From: [Candidatus Thermochlorobacteriaceae] bacterium GBChlB
Lineage (GTDB): Bacteria; Bacteroidota; Chlorobiia; Chlorobiales; Thermochlorobacteraceae
DNA length: 64,000 nt
Assembly: GCA_000724175.1 (NCBI GenBank)
Contig: JPGV01000020.1
Coordinates: forward strand, 62,001 to 126,000
Reading direction: 5' to 3'
This document shows, piece by piece, positions 8,695 through 63,775 of the stretch. The notes beneath the pieces were generated by a model. It worked only from the letters and a program-made list of their open reading frames with translations. It was not told the origin of the DNA and did not search any database. The first letter of the stretch is position 1. Every line of letters begins with the position of its first letter. A program made the translations under genes and the position numbers.

Positions 8695-9969
8695 CTACTC
8701 AATTTTTCGTTGTAAAAACCAGCGCTCGCCAATGTTGAGCGAGACATTGATGCGAAAGATGTTTTCACGAATCAGGTTTTGAGCGGTTGTGCCGCGCGAG
8801 GTGTATTGCAGGTTTAGGTCGAGCCGCGCCGATTCCGCCGCGAGCGGCAACCCAATGCCCGCCGTTACGCCAAATTCATCAATGCCTGTGCCTTGCACCG
8901 CCACATTAGTTTGCTGATAATATACACCCGCTCGATAGGCGGCGCGTTGAAAAAAACCAGCGCGTAAGTCCTGCGATTGCACGACCTCTCCGCCCACGCC
9001 GACGCGCAGGGAATTTCGTCGGAACGACACATCATCGTTGAAGTATCGAAAGTCTGACCAATTTTGAAGCGCGATGTCGACGCCCAGCACATAAGTATCG
9101 TTGCCTCTATACGAGATGCCCAACGCGAGTGAACTCGGCAGCGCGGCTTGTCCTGATGTAATGCCAATCGTATCGCGCCGCTCATTCTGCGTCAGCCAAC
9201 TGGTTGTTACGATGCTTTGGCGCGTGCCGTTGAGCGTTACGGGCGAATTGAATGCCGCGCCGAGCGTCAGTTGGTCGGCTGCTGAGAACAGTCCGCGTTT
9301 AGACGTGTAGCCGACGCCAAGCGTGTAGCCAACGCCTGAGAGTCGGTCTTCGCGGTCGAGGGCGGCGTTGGAAAATGTGGCGGGAAAAAAGGTGCTTTCT
9401 GAGGCTTCTTCAAAAACGCCAAACGCAAAATTCAGCGACGCGCCCAGCCGCAGGGTGCCAAGCGTCTCATCGCTGAACGGCGCCGCAGCAATTGTAATCG
9501 GTACGGTGTTCAGCCCGCCCACGCCCGAATAGGTGTAATCGAATTGAATTGTGTCGCCAGCGGTCGAGCGAAACGCCCCTGCTTCATTTTGCAGATAGTT
9601 CATGCGCGAATACGGATAAAGTCCCGTCGAGACGACGAGTTTCCAAATGGGAAATGCAAGTCCCGCACCTTCGAAGCCGACGACAGTTTGATAGGCGCTG
9701 CGCGTGCTTGCTTGCGCCGCGTAACCGATGTAACTGAAGTCGCCCGCAATTCTCGCTTGGTCAATCGATGAGAGCATCGCTGGATTCAGGCGATTGATGT
9801 AGAGTCCGTCTGCAATGCCGACGCCGATATAGCCCATGCCTGCCGCTTGTCCTGTCGGCGCATAGCGCAATTCTCCCACGCCGAAACGCGAATAGAGCGA
9901 GCCGCCCTGCGCAAAAGCCGTTGCCGATAAAGCGGCAAGTGCAAGGCTCATCAACACAATTTTTTTCAT
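8695..9969 (-). CDS. Outer-membrane beta-barrel protein (OmpP1/FadL-like, unknown role)
   Basis: The ATG at 9969 gives 424 residues beginning with a signal peptide MKKIVLMSLALAALSATAFAQ; upstream in-frame codons reach into lepB and are rejected. Directly after cleavage comes GSLYSRFGVGELRYAPTGQA, the 'S-YSR.G.G.L' opening of a family of Bacteroidota barrels, then GYIGVGIADG and NPAMLSSIDQAR, which resemble the N-terminal hatch region of FadL-like porins. The remainder is alternating strands; the last residues are WFLQRKIE rather than aromatic-terminal. It may transport hydrophobic compounds, but substrate is not visible. It is 16 bp downstream of the first signal peptidase gene. Confidence 0.75.
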   Translation of the reverse strand: MKKIVLMSLALAALSATAFAQGGSLYSRFGVGELRYAPTGQAAGMGYIGVGIADGLYINRLNPAMLSSIDQARIAGDFSYIGYAAQASTRSAYQTVVGFEGAGLAFPIWKLVVSTGLYPYSRMNYLQNEAGAFRSTAGDTIQFDYTYSGVGGLNTVPITIAAAPFSDETLGTLRLGASLNFAFGVFEEASESTFFPATFSNAALDREDRLSGVGYTLGVGYTSKRGLFSAADQLTLGAAFNSPVTLNGTRQSIVTTSWLTQNERRDTIGITSGQAALPSSLALGISYRGNDTYVLGVDIALQNWSDFRYFNDDVSFRRNSLRVGVGGEVVQSQDLRAGFFQRAAYRAGVYYQQTNVAVQGTGIDEFGVTAGIGLPLAAESARLDLNLQYTSRGTTAQNLIRENIFRINVSLNIGERWFLQRKIE

Positions 9970-9985
9970 CTGCTGGATTTCAACA

Positions 9986-10903
9986 TTAACGAATGATTGT
10001 TCCGATTCTTCCCCAGCGCACTGAGCCAAGTTTCTCTGTAATCTGGGAAAGCGGAATTTCAGTGTCCCACGACCAATAAATCATCAGCGCCGAGCCAACG
10101 ATGTTCGATTCTGGCACGAATCCCCAATAGCGGCTGTCTAAACTGTTGTCCCGATTGTCGCCCATCATAAAGTAGTAGTTCTGCGTAACCGTGTAGTCGC
10201 TGGCAGGTTTGCTGTCGATATAGACTTGGTTGCCCATCAACGCTGTTGTGTGTCCGTCGTATTCGATGATGGCTTTGTAGGTATAAAAATTTTCGGCGGT
10301 GAGTTTCAGCACGTCGCCTTTTTTCGGCACATAGAGCGGTCCGTAGTTGTCTTTATTGAACGACGTGTATTTCGGAAAAATGTTCATTTCGGCTCGCCCT
10401 GAGGCAACGGTGTCGTCATTCATGCGCGCGTTGAGCGGAAGCGGATACAGTGCGCCATCAACCAGAACGACTTTGTCTCGAATTTCAATCGTGCTGCCTG
10501 CTGTCGCCACGCATCGCTTGATGTAGTTTATCTCTTTATCGGGCGGAAATTTAAAGACGACAATATCGCCTTGCTCGACGTCCTTAATGCCCGACACCCG
10601 AACATCGGTAAATGGAATCGCTGCACCGTAAATGAACTTATTGACGAGCAGAAAGTCGCCGACGAGCAGCGTGTTTTCCATTGAACCGGTCGGAATTCGA
10701 TAGGCTTCCACGATGAACGAGCGTAAGATAAAGGCAGCAATGACGGCGATGAACAACGCCTCTGCCCACTCGCGGGTTTTGCTGTGCGTCGGCGGCTTGG
10801 TTGTTTGGATAGCGCGCGCATCGTTCTTGGTTGTCGTGTCCAGCGCTGGCGCGCGGTTCGGGTCGGGCGTTGGTTGCGCTTTGTTTGCCGTTGGAATTGC
10901 CAT
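9986..10903 (-). CDS. lepB: Signal peptidase I, copy 1
   Basis: 305 residues. After a Thr/Pro-rich cytoplasmic stretch there is one membrane segment (about 47-66), then box B with nucleophile Ser74 (RIPTGSMENTLLVGD), box D with general-base Lys129 (INYIKRCVATAGSTIEI) and box E MGDNRDNSLDSRYWGFVPE. It cleaves Sec signal peptides on the outer face of the inner membrane. Compared with E. coli LepB it has only one N-terminal membrane segment. It lies 11 bp downstream of a second signal peptidase gene with a near-identical core. Confidence 0.96.
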   Translation of the reverse strand: MAIPTANKAQPTPDPNRAPALDTTTKNDARAIQTTKPPTHSKTREWAEALFIAVIAAFILRSFIVEAYRIPTGSMENTLLVGDFLLVNKFIYGAAIPFTDVRVSGIKDVEQGDIVVFKFPPDKEINYIKRCVATAGSTIEIRDKVVLVDGALYPLPLNARMNDDTVASGRAEMNIFPKYTSFNKDNYGPLYVPKKGDVLKLTAENFYTYKAIIEYDGHTTALMGNQVYIDSKPASDYTVTQNYYFMMGDNRDNSLDSRYWGFVPESNIVGSALMIYWSWDTEIPLSQITEKLGSVRWGRIGTIIR

Positions 10904-36349: not shown

Positions 36350-37960
36350 TTATTTTTTGAACGCTTTGATGATTTCAGAAATTGCCTCGTCGGACAGCTT
36401 TCCCGTAACGGACGATTTCACAGGCAAAGGCGACTTACCTAACGGTCGGTTCTGCGTTGAGGGCGCGTTGCCTGCCTTTAAGCGAATGCGCTCATCAATG
36501 ATGTCGGAGAAACTTTTTTGAGACTGCGTATTTATTTTTTCGTTTGGTGTTTCCGAGGCGGGCGCAATGGGATTTCCGTTGGCGTCGTTGACAGGAGTTG
36601 TCTCGAAGCCAATGCGTTTGATATTCAAGAGGTGCATTGGCGTAATGTTGTCGGTGGTAATAGAGCCGCCAATCGTGCCGGGACCGAGTGTCATAGCGGG
36701 CGCGAGCGACGTGGTGTATCCTACTGCGCCGACCGCCGCAACAGTGTTGATTAAAATCCGAAACGCTGGTTTGTGCAACGCGAATTGCTCAATCACATGG
36801 TCGTTTTGTGAATGCAGTGCAAGCGAGTGTCCAATGCCGCCGTAGTTGAGCAGCTCAATGCAGCGTTTGCAGCCCGCTTCCCAGCCGTCCTCAACATAGA
36901 ACGCCAAAACGGGCGAGAGTTTTTCCGCCGAGAGCGGGTGTGCGCGACCGACGCCGCCTAACTCCGCCATCAAAACGGTCGTATTTGCAGGCACCGAAAG
37001 TCCCGCCCGCTCGGCAATGTAAGTTGCTGGTTTGCCGACGACTTCCGGGTTCAAGCCTTTTGGGAACATAAACCGCTCCAATTTTTGCCGCTCCTCGCCC
37101 TCGACGAAATACGCGCCGCGCTTTTTGAGTTCTTCGACAACGCGGTTCTTCAACGGCAGGTCGCACACAATCGCTTGCTCCGATGAACAGAGCGTTCCGT
37201 TATCGAACGTCTTTCCGAATAAAATATCGGCAACGGCTTTCGGCACATTGGCGGTGCGCTCGATAAACGCTGGCACGTTGCCCGACCCAACGCCGTAGGC
37301 AGGTTTGCCCGATGAATACGCGGCGCGAACCATTGGCGTGCTGCCCGTTGCAAGAATCACGCTGGTAAGGTCATGGCGCATCAGTTCCGATGTGCCTTCG
37401 AGCGTCGGCGTGGTCATACATTGAACAAGGTCGTGCGGTGCGCCTGCTTTCTTTGCTGCATCGGACATAATTTTCGCCGCCGCCGATGTGCATCGAACCG
37501 CGCGCGGGTGCGGGGAGGCGACAATCGCGTTTCGAGATTTCAGCGAAATGATGGCTTTATACATCATCGTCGAGGTCGGGTTTGTCGTCGGAATCAGCGC
37601 AGCGACGACGCCCATCGGCGTTGCAACTTCCCAGACTTTTCCGTCGTGCGTTTTTTTAATGATGCCGCACGTTTTCATCTCCTTGATGTAATCGTAGAGC
37701 ATTTTTGTGCCGACGATATTTTTGGTGATTTTGTCTTTCACCACGCCGAAGCCAGTTTCCTCGACGGCGAGTTTGGCGAGTTTCTCGCGCGCGTCGTAGC
37801 CCGCTTCCGCCATCGCTTTAACGATTTTATCGACGCGCTCTTGCGACAACTCTTTGTAAAGCTCGCACGCCACTTTTGCTTTTTGAAGCAAGGCTCGCGC
37901 TTCCTGAATTGATTTAAGGTCGGTCGAGAGTTCCATCGCCGTTATGGTTTGGTTGTCCAC
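36350..37960 (-). CDS. CoA-acylating aldehyde dehydrogenase (AdhE/EutE type) with C-terminal encapsulation-peptide-like helix
   Basis: 536 residues. Start: GTG at 37960 with GAAAGG 5-6 bp before it; ATG at 37936 (Met9) is an alternative. ALDH fold with IPTTNPTSTMMYKAI, VILATGSTPMVRAAYSSGKPAYGVGSGN (NAD site) and catalytic Cys258 in FDNGTLCSSEQAIV, the AdhE-type sequence; SLALHSQND, INTVAAVGAVGYTTSL and GPGTIGGSITTDN are also AdhE/PduP-type. The enzyme makes acyl-CoA from aldehyde, CoA and NAD+. Residues ~455-520 are a non-conserved linker (with an SFSDIIDERIRLK helix), and 522-536 are LSDEAISEIIKAFKK, the pattern of microcompartment targeting helices. No alcohol-dehydrogenase domain is fused. 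It overlaps the upstream gene by 19 bp. Confidence 0.93.
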   Translation of the reverse strand: MDNQTITAMELSTDLKSIQEARALLQKAKVACELYKELSQERVDKIVKAMAEAGYDAREKLAKLAVEETGFGVVKDKITKNIVGTKMLYDYIKEMKTCGIIKKTHDGKVWEVATPMGVVAALIPTTNPTSTMMYKAIISLKSRNAIVASPHPRAVRCTSAAAKIMSDAAKKAGAPHDLVQCMTTPTLEGTSELMRHDLTSVILATGSTPMVRAAYSSGKPAYGVGSGNVPAFIERTANVPKAVADILFGKTFDNGTLCSSEQAIVCDLPLKNRVVEELKKRGAYFVEGEERQKLERFMFPKGLNPEVVGKPATYIAERAGLSVPANTTVLMAELGGVGRAHPLSAEKLSPVLAFYVEDGWEAGCKRCIELLNYGGIGHSLALHSQNDHVIEQFALHKPAFRILINTVAAVGAVGYTTSLAPAMTLGPGTIGGSITTDNITPMHLLNIKRIGFETTPVNDANGNPIAPASETPNEKINTQSQKSFSDIIDERIRLKAGNAPSTQNRPLGKSPLPVKSSVTGKLSDEAISEIIKAFKK

Positions 37961-60431: not shown

Positions 60432-61331
60432 TTATCCGCCGATGTATTCTTTCAGAACACCGCTATACGGCGAGTGGCGCAGTCGGCGAATCGCCTTTTC
60501 TTTGATTTGCCGCACGCGCTCGCGCGTGAGCTTGAACTTCTCGCCGATTTCTTCCAGCGTAAGCGGGTTGTCCATTCCAATTCCAAAATACGAGCGAATC
60601 ACGTCTGCCTCGCGCGGCGTGAGCGAAGAGAGCGAGCGCTCGACTTCAATGCGAAGCGACTCGCGCATCAATCCGTGGTCGGGACGCTGCGAATCGTTTT
60701 GAAGCACATCGAGCAGTCGGTTGTCATCGCCCTGCGCAAAGGGCGCATCGACCGAAATGTGCCGCCCTGCAATTTTGAGCGTGTCAGTGATTTCCGACGA
60801 GTTCATATCGAGCAGATTCGCCAGCTCTTCCGTGCTGGGGTCGCGCTCAAATTCCTGCTCCAACTGCGAGAACGCCTTGCCGATTTTATTGAGCGTGCCG
60901 ACGCGGTTGAGCGGCAACCGCACAATGCGCGACTGCTCGGCGAGCGCCTGTAAAATCGATTGACGAATCCACCAGACCGCGTAGGAAATGAACTTAAATC
61001 CGCGCGTTTCATCGAAGCGTTTTGCCGCCTTGATGAGACCGAGGTTGCCCTCGTTAATCAAATCGCCGAGCGATAAGCCTTGATTTTGATACTGCTTCGC
61101 CACCGACACCACAAAGCGCAAGTTCGCCTTAATGAGCTTCTCCAACGCCCGACGCCCTTCCTTGAACTCTTTGGAATCGACGGGCTTGCCGTCGCCCTTT
61201 TTGATTTTCATCGTGAGCGTGATTTCGTCTTGCGCCGTGAGCAAATCGAACTTGCCGATTTCCTGCAAATATCGGTCGAGCGATTGGCTCTCGCGGTTCG
61301 TAATCTGCCTGCTGATTTTTAACTGTCTCAT
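60432..61331 (-). CDS. rpoD: RNA polymerase primary sigma factor (short type)
   Basis: 299 residues, lacking region 1.1, as in Bacteroidota/Chlorobiota. It begins [19 protein letters not shown]; region 1.2-2.1 [14 protein letters not shown]; region 2.4 [19 protein letters not shown], then [17 protein letters not shown]; region 4.2 [28 protein letters not shown]. Its likely promoter is that of the operon at 63826-63856 (none was found in the 26-bp gap before it), so housekeeping sigma expression may be tied to genes for shell proteins. An internal promoter cannot be excluded. Confidence 0.96.
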
Positions 61332-61357: not shown

Positions 61358-61777
61358 TTATTTAAGAACTATTACTGAATCGACTACAACATCGATGCGG
61401 TCGACAATCCCGACGATGGTCGCGTCTGTCGGCACAAGCGACATTTGCTTGCGGCTGCGTATCGGAATCGCCGCTTCAGACGATGTTACGAACATCACGG
61501 TTTCGCCGGCGCCCGCGCCGACCGAATTGACGGCGGCAATCGGACTGCCCGACGGCTTCTTTGCCGCATCGAGCGGCTGGACGAGTTGCAATGTTTCGCC
61601 GACCAAGCTCGCGTCCTTTTGCGTCGCCCAAATCGCACCGATTACTTTTCCGAAATACACTTTAACGATTGACGAATTTGGATTGTTTTGTCCACGATTT
61701 AAAAATGTCGCACCCGAACCGAGCAAATTGTTCAACTTTTTCGAAACGACCTTTCCCTGATTTGAGAATCCCTTCAT
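61358..61777 (-). CDS. eutN: EutN/CcmL microcompartment vertex protein 1, with N-terminal extension
   Basis: 139 residues from ATG 61777, or 100 from GTG 61660. The core, [25 protein letters not shown]..., [20 protein letters not shown] and [14 protein letters not shown], is a complete EutN/CcmL (PF03319) fold; the GAGAGETV loop forms the pore region of the pentamer that caps vertices of bacterial microcompartments. The 38-residue basic extension ([20 protein letters not shown]) is unusual and may be non-coding if GTG is used. It is paralogous to the next gene upstream (62080-61811), and its stop lies 27 bp before the rpoD start. Confidence 0.85.
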
Positions 61778-61810
61778 CTGGCATCTGGCATCGTCCCTTT
61801 CAGTTCGTCC

Positions 61811-62080
61811 TCATTCTGCGACATCGAGTTTATCGACGATTGCCATGATGACGGCGTCTACGGGCTTATTCTTCGTCAGTTCCGTCAGCCGCGCTGAGCT
61901 GCCGGTGGCAACGAGAACCGTTTCGCCGACGCCCGCCCCGACCGAATCAACCGCCACCAAAAAACTCTCTTTGCTTTGACCGTCCAAGCCGATGTGTCGC
62001 ACCAACTGCAATTTCATGCCGACAAGTCCCTCATCTTTGCGCGTCGCCCAAATCGTGCCGATTACCTTTCCCAAAATCAT
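61811..62080 (-). CDS. eutN: EutN/CcmL microcompartment vertex protein 2
   Basis: The ATG at 62080 gives 89 residues beginning MILGKVIGTIWATRKDEGLV, the canonical EutN start; a 107-residue form from ATG 62134 adds MWNFSRSGTVFNQSCKQT. The core SVGAGVGETVLVATGSSA and the ending VIMAIVDKLDVAE are typical. A pair of different EutN-type proteins is common in heteromeric BMC shells, where several pentamers occur. No BMC-H or BMC-T hexamer gene lies near. Spacing to the GAF-GGDEF gene upstream is 69 bp. Confidence 0.9.
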   Translation of the reverse strand: MILGKVIGTIWATRKDEGLVGMKLQLVRHIGLDGQSKESFLVAVDSVGAGVGETVLVATGSSARLTELTKNKPVDAVIMAIVDKLDVAE

Positions 62081-62149
62081 TGTTTGTTTACAACTCTGGT
62101 TGAAAACCGTTCCACTACGGCTAAAATTCCACACGGTTACAAAAATTTG

Positions 62150-63775
62150 TTAAAAAATCTTCACCACATTGCCGCCTGATTGTCGCGCGTGGTCTAAGGC
62201 TCTTTCAGCTTGCTCGAGCAGGAGTTCCACATCGGGCTTATCTGGTTTCAGCCGTGCAATACCGACGCTGACGGTGGCAATGATGGTTTTGTATTCGTCG
62301 TCCGTCTCAAACGGCGAGTTTAAGATTTGCTCGCGGATTTTGTCCGCCCAAAACCGCGCGTTGAGTTCCGAGATGCCGCTCAAACAAACGGCGAATTTTA
62401 GGTTATCCAGTCGGGCGAGTAAGTCGTAATTGCGCGTATTAGCTTCGATGAGCCTCGCCGTTGAGCGCATCAATTGCGTGAGCGATGCTTGTCCGTAGCG
62501 GCTTTTGAGTCCGTCCGTGTCGTCGAAGGCGATGAGCATCAGCACAAGGTCGTGTCCGAGCCGCGTTGCGCGATTGATGTCGGCACGAAGCCGCGAAAAA
62601 AATGTGCGCACAGAGAGCGTGTTGGTTTCCTCATCGAGCGGTGTTACAGTTCTGACGCGCTCGTCCAGAAGCATCACTTGCATCGAGAATGTCAGCGCCT
62701 CAGCGAAAAAACGCACGCGCGCGAAGGTTTCGGACGTGAAAAAACTTTTTTGTCCGCTTTCCAGCACCAGCGCTCCTGCAGTAAGGTCGCCTAACCTAAT
62801 CGGCAGAATCAGCATCGAGCCGTTTTTTTCAATGGCAGGTTCGCCCGAAAAAAAGCGTGGCGTTTCGCCGAGTTGAGCAAGGTCGTCAATTGCGCCGTGT
62901 TCGCCGTGCAAAATGCACAGCCCGACCGCCGAGCGTTCTAAGTCGATTTTTGCCCCTTCGGAAATGTATCCTTGTGCCGACCTGACCTTGCGAACGGTCA
63001 TTTCGGACTTCGAGTTGAGCAACAAAAGCGCCAGATGGTCAACGTCAACGGCTTCGGTGAGCGACTCGCACAAGCAGGTTAAAATGGTCTCCAAGTTTGT
63101 CGTCGCGTGAAGCGTGTGCATAAACGCCTGCGCTGGTTCGGCAAACCGCATGGACTCGAGATAGGCTGATTTCAGGGCATAGTTGTCGATGAGCGTCGAG
63201 CAAATTTTTCCGAATCGGTTGAGCAGCTTTACGTCGTCGTGTCCGAATGCGCCTTTTTCGATGCTGTCGGCGAAGAGCACCGCATAGATTTGGTCGCGGT
63301 GAAATACAGGCACGCCCATAAACGCTTTGATGGCATTGGGCGCGAGGTAGTATCGAATAATTTTAGGTTCGTCTGCTGCGCTGATTTCCGTGTAGAGCTG
63401 TGCGTTTCGCGCCAAAAAAATTTGTGTAACGGCGTCGCTGCCGAAGGCAAGCCATTTATCGGTGGTGAAATCGGCGGCATCGGTTTGATGCGAGGCGATG
63501 TAAAACTTTTTTTTCGCCTGACTTACCCAACAAAAGGCAACGGTGCGGGCTTGAACAGTTTCCTTGACAGTGGCCAGCAAGTCGGTAATAATTGCGCCGA
63601 GTTCTTCTTCAATGCTGCCTTGCGATTCGGCACTGACAGACGGCGTCGGGTCGGCGAATGTCTCCAGCTCGATTTTAACGGTCTTGGGCGCGGCCTCTGG
63701 CCTGTATTTGCGGACATTGATAACGCCTTCAAAGTCGTCGGACGTTTGCTTGAAAAAACCTTGCGTTTCCAACAC
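62150..63775 (-). CDS. GAF-GAF sensor with degenerate GGDEF domain
   Basis: 541 residues, GTG start at 63775 with GTAGGG before it. Two GAF-like domains: about 60-200 (MGVPVFHRDQIYAVLFADSIEKGAFGHDDVKLLNRFG) and 215-370 (SMLILPIRLGDLTAGALVLESGQKSFFTSETFARV). The C-terminal GGDEF-family domain (about 385-541) keeps HDLVLMLIAFDDTDGLKSRYG and SVGIA, but the GGDEF signature reads LDNLKF at 456-461 (ARLDNLKFAVC), so cyclase activity is unlikely. It lies first in an operon with two EutN genes and rpoD, suggesting a regulatory or signal-sensing role there. Confidence 0.9.
   Translation of the reverse strand: MLETQGFFKQTSDDFEGVINVRKYRPEAAPKTVKIELETFADPTPSVSAESQGSIEEELGAIITDLLATVKETVQARTVAFCWVSQAKKKFYIASHQTDAADFTTDKWLAFGSDAVTQIFLARNAQLYTEISAADEPKIIRYYLAPNAIKAFMGVPVFHRDQIYAVLFADSIEKGAFGHDDVKLLNRFGKICSTLIDNYALKSAYLESMRFAEPAQAFMHTLHATTNLETILTCLCESLTEAVDVDHLALLLLNSKSEMTVRKVRSAQGYISEGAKIDLERSAVGLCILHGEHGAIDDLAQLGETPRFFSGEPAIEKNGSMLILPIRLGDLTAGALVLESGQKSFFTSETFARVRFFAEALTFSMQVMLLDERVRTVTPLDEETNTLSVRTFFSRLRADINRATRLGHDLVLMLIAFDDTDGLKSRYGQASLTQLMRSTARLIEANTRNYDLLARLDNLKFAVCLSGISELNARFWADKIREQILNSPFETDDEYKTIIATVSVGIARLKPDKPDVELLLEQAERALDHARQSGGNVVKIF

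What the first reader, a model, noticed from the sequence alone, without database searches (positions are those of the whole stretch)
61358..62134. Two EutN/CcmL vertex proteins point to a bacterial microcompartment with the shell genes elsewhere
Sequence shows two complete, non-identical EutN/CcmL domains side by side. Established knowledge: EutN/CcmL (PF03319) pentamers close the vertices of microcompartment shells and work with BMC-H/BMC-T hexamers. No hexamer gene is within 64 kb of sequence here, so the locus is a satellite arrangement. That is unusual, because shell genes normally cluster with enzymes. With the aldehyde dehydrogenase at 36-38 kb (separate finding) this suggests a dispersed, possibly undescribed, BMC in an FCB-group bacterium.
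Basis: partly seen in the sequence, partly recalled or inferred. Interest (0 to 1): 0.9.

Follow-up and report, generated by a model that had tools for sequence, protein, structure and literature searches.

The report
Scattered-gene microcompartment for deoxyribose breakdown
The two genes are real corner proteins of a bacterial protein-shelled compartment whose genes are scattered around the genome, and related genomes suggest that it breaks down deoxyribose phosphate, a DNA sugar, through toxic acetaldehyde; this would give a job to a catalogued class of compartments whose function was unknown.

Summary
In detail: two adjacent EutN/CcmL (PF03319) genes. The arrangement is not undescribed. It fits the "FRAG" microcompartments of Sutter et al. 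2021 (PMC8217296): scattered shell genes, vertex-protein triplets, signature enzyme unknown.

New here is evidence for the cargo. (1) The window's aldehyde dehydrogenase (36350-37960) is of the CoA-acylating acetaldehyde type with a conserved C-terminal helix resembling an encapsulation peptide. In 247 genomes of the phylum it occurs in 46 of 48 with PF03319 and 0 of 199 without; the two exceptions carry other compartment types. (2) Deoxyribose-phosphate aldolase (DeoC), which releases acetaldehyde, has an N-terminal extension in 45 of those 48 and no recognisable one in the other 199. A sister genus lacking vertex genes and this dehydrogenase has plain DeoC. (3) In Ignavibacteria, phosphopentomutase lies just upstream of the vertex pair.

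Most likely: a dispersed deoxyribose-phosphate metabolosome. Weak points: the window's family lacks phosphopentomutase, its genome lacks the third vertex gene, one same-order genome has the compartment but unextended DeoC, and nothing is shown experimentally.

The parts
61811..62134 (-). BMC-P vertex protein 1 (EutN/CcmL family); likely start ATG at 62080, PF03319 domain from there
   Evidence: PF03319 105 bits, protein residues 19-101; nearest solved chain 5v74, 86 bits; sequence
61358..61777 (-). BMC-P vertex protein 2; likely start GTG at 61660
   Evidence: PF03319 88 bits, residues 42-126; sequence
62150..63775 (-). GAF/GGDEF protein upstream of the BMC-P pair; conserved neighbour, role in the compartment unknown
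   Evidence: PF00990 and GAF domains; present at 64 of 80 named relatives' loci
60432..61331 (-). Primary-type sigma factor (RpoD-like) downstream of the BMC-P pair; conserved neighbour, probably housekeeping
   Evidence: Sigma70 regions 1.2, 2, 3 and 4; present at 75 of 80 named relatives' loci
36350..37960 (-). CoA-acylating acetaldehyde dehydrogenase, probable cargo enzyme
   Evidence: TIGR02518 613 bits, cut-off 620.1; same phyletic pattern as PF03319
36467..36514 (-). First conserved segment of the AldDh C-terminal tail (SFSDIIDERIRLKAGN, residues 483-498)
   Evidence: Alignment A1; tails of relatives; sequence
36353..36397 (-). Terminal encapsulation-peptide-like helix of the AldDh (LSDEAISEIIKAFKK, residues 522-536)
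   Evidence: Similar terminal segment in all 40 tails printed; amphipathic moment above shuffles, mean z 2.1; sequence

Best explanation
The two genes encode vertex pentamers of one dispersed (FRAG-type) bacterial microcompartment. Its facets would be made by the two BMC-H proteins encoded on contig C13. Its cargo would be (a) DeoC, deoxyribose-5-phosphate aldolase (contig C23), targeted by an N-terminal helical extension, and (b) the CoA-acylating acetaldehyde dehydrogenase at window 36350-37960, targeted by its C-terminal helix. [quoted passage not shown] In Ignavibacteria, phosphopentomutase next to the vertex pair would feed the pathway from deoxynucleosides. Shown here: gene identities, gene order, tails, co-occurrence. 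Inferred: assembly, encapsulation, chemistry in vivo. Not found: the enzyme that recycles CoA, and the source of deoxyribose-5-phosphate in the window's own family.
For: Hexamers present. AldDh orthologue in 46 of 48 PF03319-positive and 0 of 199 negative genomes, with a conserved terminal helix. DeoC N-terminal extension in 45 of 48 and none recognisable in 199; the sister genus without PF03319 or this AldDh has an unextended DeoC beside the same ABC-transporter gene. EP-like pattern h..hh..hh in 23 of 33 DeoC N-termini, shuffled mean 1.3. Phosphopentomutase at 72 of 80 named loci, 65 of them within 700 bp upstream of the BMC-P pair on the same strand. In G127, deoB, the BMC-P pair and extended deoC lie in one stretch. 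SPU compartments are proposed to do the same chemistry with DeoC and AldDh (PMC8217296).
Against: Chloroherpetonaceae, the window's own family, lack DeoB. The window's genome has only two BMC-P genes instead of the usual three. G054, same order, has three BMC-P and the tailed AldDh but a DeoC without extension. G063 has extended DeoC but its BMC-P genes lie in a different, clustered BMC locus. The DeoC extension of the window's genome is less like a textbook encapsulation peptide than the Ignavibacterial ones; single-sequence amphipathicity is only modestly above shuffles. Genomes are related, so the p-values overstate independence. No CoA-recycling enzyme was identified. No experiment.
Confidence: 0.7

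Rival explanations
1. A real FRAG microcompartment, but its main aldehyde is not made by DeoC: acetaldehyde comes from another source (for example ethanol), and the DeoC extension does something else, such as oligomerisation.
For: AldDh tracks the shell slightly better than extended DeoC (46 vs 45 of 48). G054 has shell genes and tailed AldDh but plain DeoC. DeoB is missing from the window's family.
Against: The extension is confined to shell-positive genomes and is absent from the syntenic DeoC of the shell-negative sister genus; phosphopentomutase neighbours the vertex pair in Ignavibacteria.
Confidence: 0.2
2. The EutN-like proteins have a non-compartment role next to the sigma factor and GGDEF gene (for example regulation), and no closed shell is made.
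For: They sit among housekeeping genes in nearly all relatives, and genus g4 keeps a BMC-H without any BMC-P.
Against: BMC-H genes are present in the same genome, tail-bearing AldDh and extended DeoC co-occur with the vertex genes across the phylum, and a third BMC-P copy elsewhere is the rule.
Confidence: 0.07
3. Assembly artefact: shell genes and cargo genes come from different organisms binned together.
For: The genome is a 51-contig assembly and the hexamer contig is short, 27 kb.
Against: Given as 100% complete and 0.4% contaminated; the same set recurs in relatives, with AldDh 73-79% identical and conserved neighbours.
Confidence: 0.02

Closest known systems
FRAG bacterial microcompartments (Sutter et al. 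2021, PMC8217296)
   Same: Shell genes in several genomic places; BMC-P triplet in relatives; AldDh present; Ignavibacteriae and related phyla.
   Different: The main text gives no signature enzyme for FRAG1-7; here DeoC is proposed. The window's genome has two BMC-P, not three. The FRAG subtype was not determined.
SPU (sugar phosphate utilization) microcompartments (PMC8217296)
   Same: DeoC-type aldolase making acetaldehyde, AldDh converting it to acetyl-CoA; proposed use of DNA breakdown products.
   Different: SPU genes form one locus with RpiB (PF02502); here the parts are scattered and RpiB was not searched.
HO microcompartment of Haliangium ochraceum (PMC8217296)
   Same: Some HO genomes have a remote DeoC-family gene with an EP-like N-terminal extension; the closest solved chain to BMC-P 1 (5v74) is from this shell.
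   Different: HO has main loci carrying BMC-T proteins; here only two single-domain BMC-H proteins were found and no main locus exists.

Membership tests
BMC-P vertex proteins (PF03319) | Full-length PF03319 domain above the curated cut-off | tested here: met
   105 and 88 bits, cut-off 25
BMC-P vertex proteins (PF03319) | Forms pentamers at shell vertices | not testable with these tools
   Sequence similarity to solved pentamers only
Bacterial microcompartment | Both hexamer (PF00936) and pentamer (PF03319) genes in the genome | tested here: met
   Two PF00936 genes on C13 and two PF03319 genes in the window
FRAG BMC | Shell genes in several genomic places, no main locus with both BMC-H and BMC-P | tested here: met
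   BMC-P on C20, BMC-H on C13; same in relatives
FRAG BMC | BMC-P triplet (a common feature, not strictly defining) | tested here: inconclusive
   Three copies in most relatives; only two found in this genome
FRAG BMC | FRAG-type clades of the shell-protein trees or HMMs | not tested
   The published FRAG HMMs were not available here
SPU BMC | DeoC-type aldolase (PF01791) with AldDh | tested here: met
   DeoC at C23 (PF01791 64.5 bits); AldDh
SPU BMC | RpiB-type isomerase (PF02502) | not tested
SPU BMC | Shell and enzyme genes in one locus | tested here: not met
   Parts on C13, C20 and C23. Not filed as SPU, though it probably works like one
Encapsulation peptide on AldDh | 15-20 residue amphipathic helix on a flexible linker at a terminus | tested here: met
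   targeting itself not testable
Encapsulation peptide on DeoC | 15-20 residue amphipathic helix on a flexible linker at a terminus | tested here: inconclusive
   Clear pattern in Ignavibacteria (23 of 33 N-termini), weaker in the window's family

The most novel reading that the evidence does not exclude
The Ignavibacteria/Chlorobiota FRAG compartments are DNA-salvage organelles: imported DNA or nucleosides are degraded and the deoxyribose is consumed in a routinely expressed compartment whose genes sit among housekeeping genes. The third vertex gene lying beside dprA (a DNA-uptake and recombination factor) in several families would then be a functional link rather than accidental synteny.
Probability: 0.15. 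Interest if true: 0.8.

Novelty: new variant of a known kind. Interest (0 to 1): 0.62.

Why it matters
FRAG compartments were catalogued without a known function. A candidate signature enzyme whose extra segment almost perfectly tracks the shell genes across 247 genomes turns an enigmatic class into a testable one. It also suggests that a metabolosome can persist with its parts encoded in different places, among housekeeping genes. It extends such compartments to Chloroherpetonaceae and probably to the cultured phototroph Chloroherpeton, where microscopy could be done.

Tried and rejected
Literature searches for FRAG function, deoxyribose and Ignavibacterial or Chlorobial BMCs found no paper assigning this function in the library held; supplementary files could not be read, so an earlier mention there cannot be excluded. 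Phosphopentomutase as a universal partner was rejected for Chloroherpetonaceae (weak, partial, below-cut-off hits only). A phosphosugar mutase gene beside the third BMC-P in some families was considered as a substitute, but it matches archaeal-type GlmM and was not pursued. Genes beside the BMC-H pair in the window's genome (glutathionylspermidine synthase-like, DUF350, a 204 aa protein between the two BMC-H genes) had no counterpart at the relatives' fetched loci and were set aside. The C-terminal module of BMC-H 2 gave no credible Pfam match.

Full report
OBSERVATION. The window is G000:C20:62001-126000 of a 3.05 Mb, 51-contig genome given as 100% complete. Both minus-strand ORFs are full-length PF03319 proteins (105 and 88 bits), closest among solved structures to Haliangium BMC-P and to EutN/CcmL pentamers. 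The sequence suggests starts at ATG 62080 and GTG 61660. The nearest named relatives are Chloroherpetonaceae / Candidatus Thermochlorobacteriaceae MAGs.

HEXAMERS. The genome has two PF00936 genes on contig C13 (20514-20741 and 21466-21693) and no other; PF03319 occurs only in the window. The first BMC-H reaches the EutM equivalog cut-off (136.5 vs 133 bits). The second carries a C-terminal extension. So hexamers and pentamers are both encoded, in two places.

FAMILY COMPARISON. Relatives G001, G002, G003 and G005 have the BMC-P pair, a third BMC-P elsewhere and a BMC-H pair elsewhere. G004, an 81% complete assembly, shows one BMC-P and no BMC-H. Genus g4 (G006-G008) has no PF03319 but keeps a BMC-H. 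The BMC-P pair lies between the GAF/GGDEF gene and the RpoD-like sigma factor in the family members where it was found. In 80 named relatives (Chlorobiota, Kryptonia, Ignavibacteria, some Calditrichota), 78 have two BMC-P genes, 75 the sigma factor and 64 the GGDEF gene.

ALDEHYDE DEHYDROGENASE. The gene at 36350-37960 scores 613 bits on TIGR02518, acetylating acetaldehyde dehydrogenase (cut-off 620.1), and 493-504 bits to the two best solved members. Orthologues exist in G000-G005 and not in G006-G008, the same pattern as PF03319. Its C-terminus beyond residue ~456 is a variable linker holding two conserved segments, here SFSDIIDERIRLKAGN and LSDEAISEIIKAFKK. The 40 tails printed from across the group end in a similar segment, often of the form GISEEEIxKIIxEF; its amphipathic moment exceeds shuffles (mean z 2.1). 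Encapsulation peptides are described as 15-20 residue amphipathic helices on a flexible linker (PMC8217296).

SIGNATURE ENZYME. In 72 of 80 named relatives a phosphopentomutase gene (DeoB; 523 bits on NF003766 for the one from L040) lies by the BMC-P pair, in 65 within 700 bp upstream on the same strand. The eight without it are the Chlorobiales, Kryptonia and two further loci. That link pointed to deoxynucleoside breakdown, so DeoC was examined. The window's genome has one DeoC (C23:41614-42246, 290 bits on TIGR00126). It has about 55 residues before the canonical core, which starts at residue 56. BMC-P-positive family members in which DeoC was found share the extension. DeoC of g4 lacks it (227 aa in G007 and G008), although it sits beside the same ABC-transporter gene. 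In Ignavibacteria and Kryptonia the extension is about 70-81 aa and often opens with helices such as MDREYLEKIIEELLLEV or MRQSEIDKIIQNILGE. The pattern h..hh..hh occurs in 23 of 33 N-termini against a shuffled mean of 1.3. Second DeoC copies in three genomes match only from about the core.

ASSOCIATION. In 247 genomes drawn from the phylum, 48 have PF03319, most of them exactly three copies. The AldDh (600 bits or more) is in 46 of the 48 and in none of 199; extended DeoC is in 45 of the 48 and in none of 199. About 60 of the 199 have a canonical DeoC whose profile match starts only near the core; the apparent exception G008 comes from reading through stop codons. Fisher p-values are around 1e-46 but ignore ancestry, so they are not probabilities. 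Families f1, f7 and f32 contain contrasts agreeing with the model: shell-negative members with unextended DeoC. G179 and G288, shell-positive without this AldDh, carry other, clustered BMC types. The real exception is G054, a 3,293,456-base single contig of the same order (from memory this is the size of the Chloroherpeton thalassium genome; not verified): three BMC-P, tailed AldDh, DeoC of 234 aa without extension.

GENE ORDER. In G127 the pieces lie in one stretch: GGDEF, deoB, BMC-P, BMC-P, rpoD, further genes, then extended deoC. Genes that read by eye as def and fmt stand between rpoD and deoC there, and similar genes lie near the BMC-H pair in the window's genome. This suggests, without proving it, that the scattered parts descend from a larger cluster.

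MECHANISM. [quoted passage not shown] the AldDh captures acetaldehyde as acetyl-CoA. This is the chemistry proposed for SPU compartments (PMC8217296). The CoA and NAD recycling enzymes are unknown here. DeoB is absent in Chloroherpetonaceae, so the source of deoxyribose-5-phosphate there is open.

KNOWN OR NEW. The arrangement is that of FRAG compartments: shell genes in up to six places, BMC-P triplets, Ignavibacteriae and related phyla. The paper's main text lists FRAG1-7 among types without an obvious signature enzyme. It also notes EP-like N-terminal extensions on remote DeoC in some HO genomes, which is a precedent. The DeoC/DeoB assignment for FRAG was not found in the literature held, but supplements were not readable. 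Verdict: a known class of organelle, with a new and testable functional assignment.

Noticed in passing
L275:8696-9796, L276:8816-9928, L277:8782-9900 (Pfam-checked); L279:366-1487, L282:8787-9884, L288:10372-11499, L290:8783-9898 (by eye): The third, remote BMC-P gene lies next to dprA (PF02481), a DNA-uptake and recombination gene, in several families of the phylum.
   Followed up: partly
L161:9781-10101, L162:9797-10072, L163:9777-10046 (genus g4): Three related genomes keep a BMC-H gene but have no BMC-P gene and no FRAG-type AldDh: an orphan hexamer.
   Followed up: no
L005:16431-16991 and orthologues in L146, L150, L154, L158: The second BMC-H has a conserved C-terminal module (VxELRxxAR...GREISR...LLR) behind a variable linker, somewhat like a SAP or Rho-N fold by eye; no credible Pfam match.
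   Followed up: partly
L005:15812-16426: In the window's genome a 204 aa protein with a signal-peptide-like start is inserted between the two BMC-H genes, which are adjacent in relatives.
   Followed up: no
L155:7545-9392, L159:1-1401, L160:2521-4368; also L154:8721-10790, L158:2775-4838: In genus g3 an acetyl-CoA-synthetase-like gene directly precedes the AldDh gene and a related one lies near the BMC-H pair; a possible CoA-handling partner.
   Followed up: partly
L283:8533-9906 with BMC-P at 9903-10181: In G050 the third BMC-P overlaps by 4 bp the end of an archaeal-GlmM-type phosphosugar mutase gene; similar mutases lie near the third BMC-P in L275 and L288.
   Followed up: partly
G054 (L271, L272, L273): A single-contig genome of the same order, probably Chloroherpeton thalassium by size, has the compartment genes and would be a culturable test organism.
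   Followed up: partly
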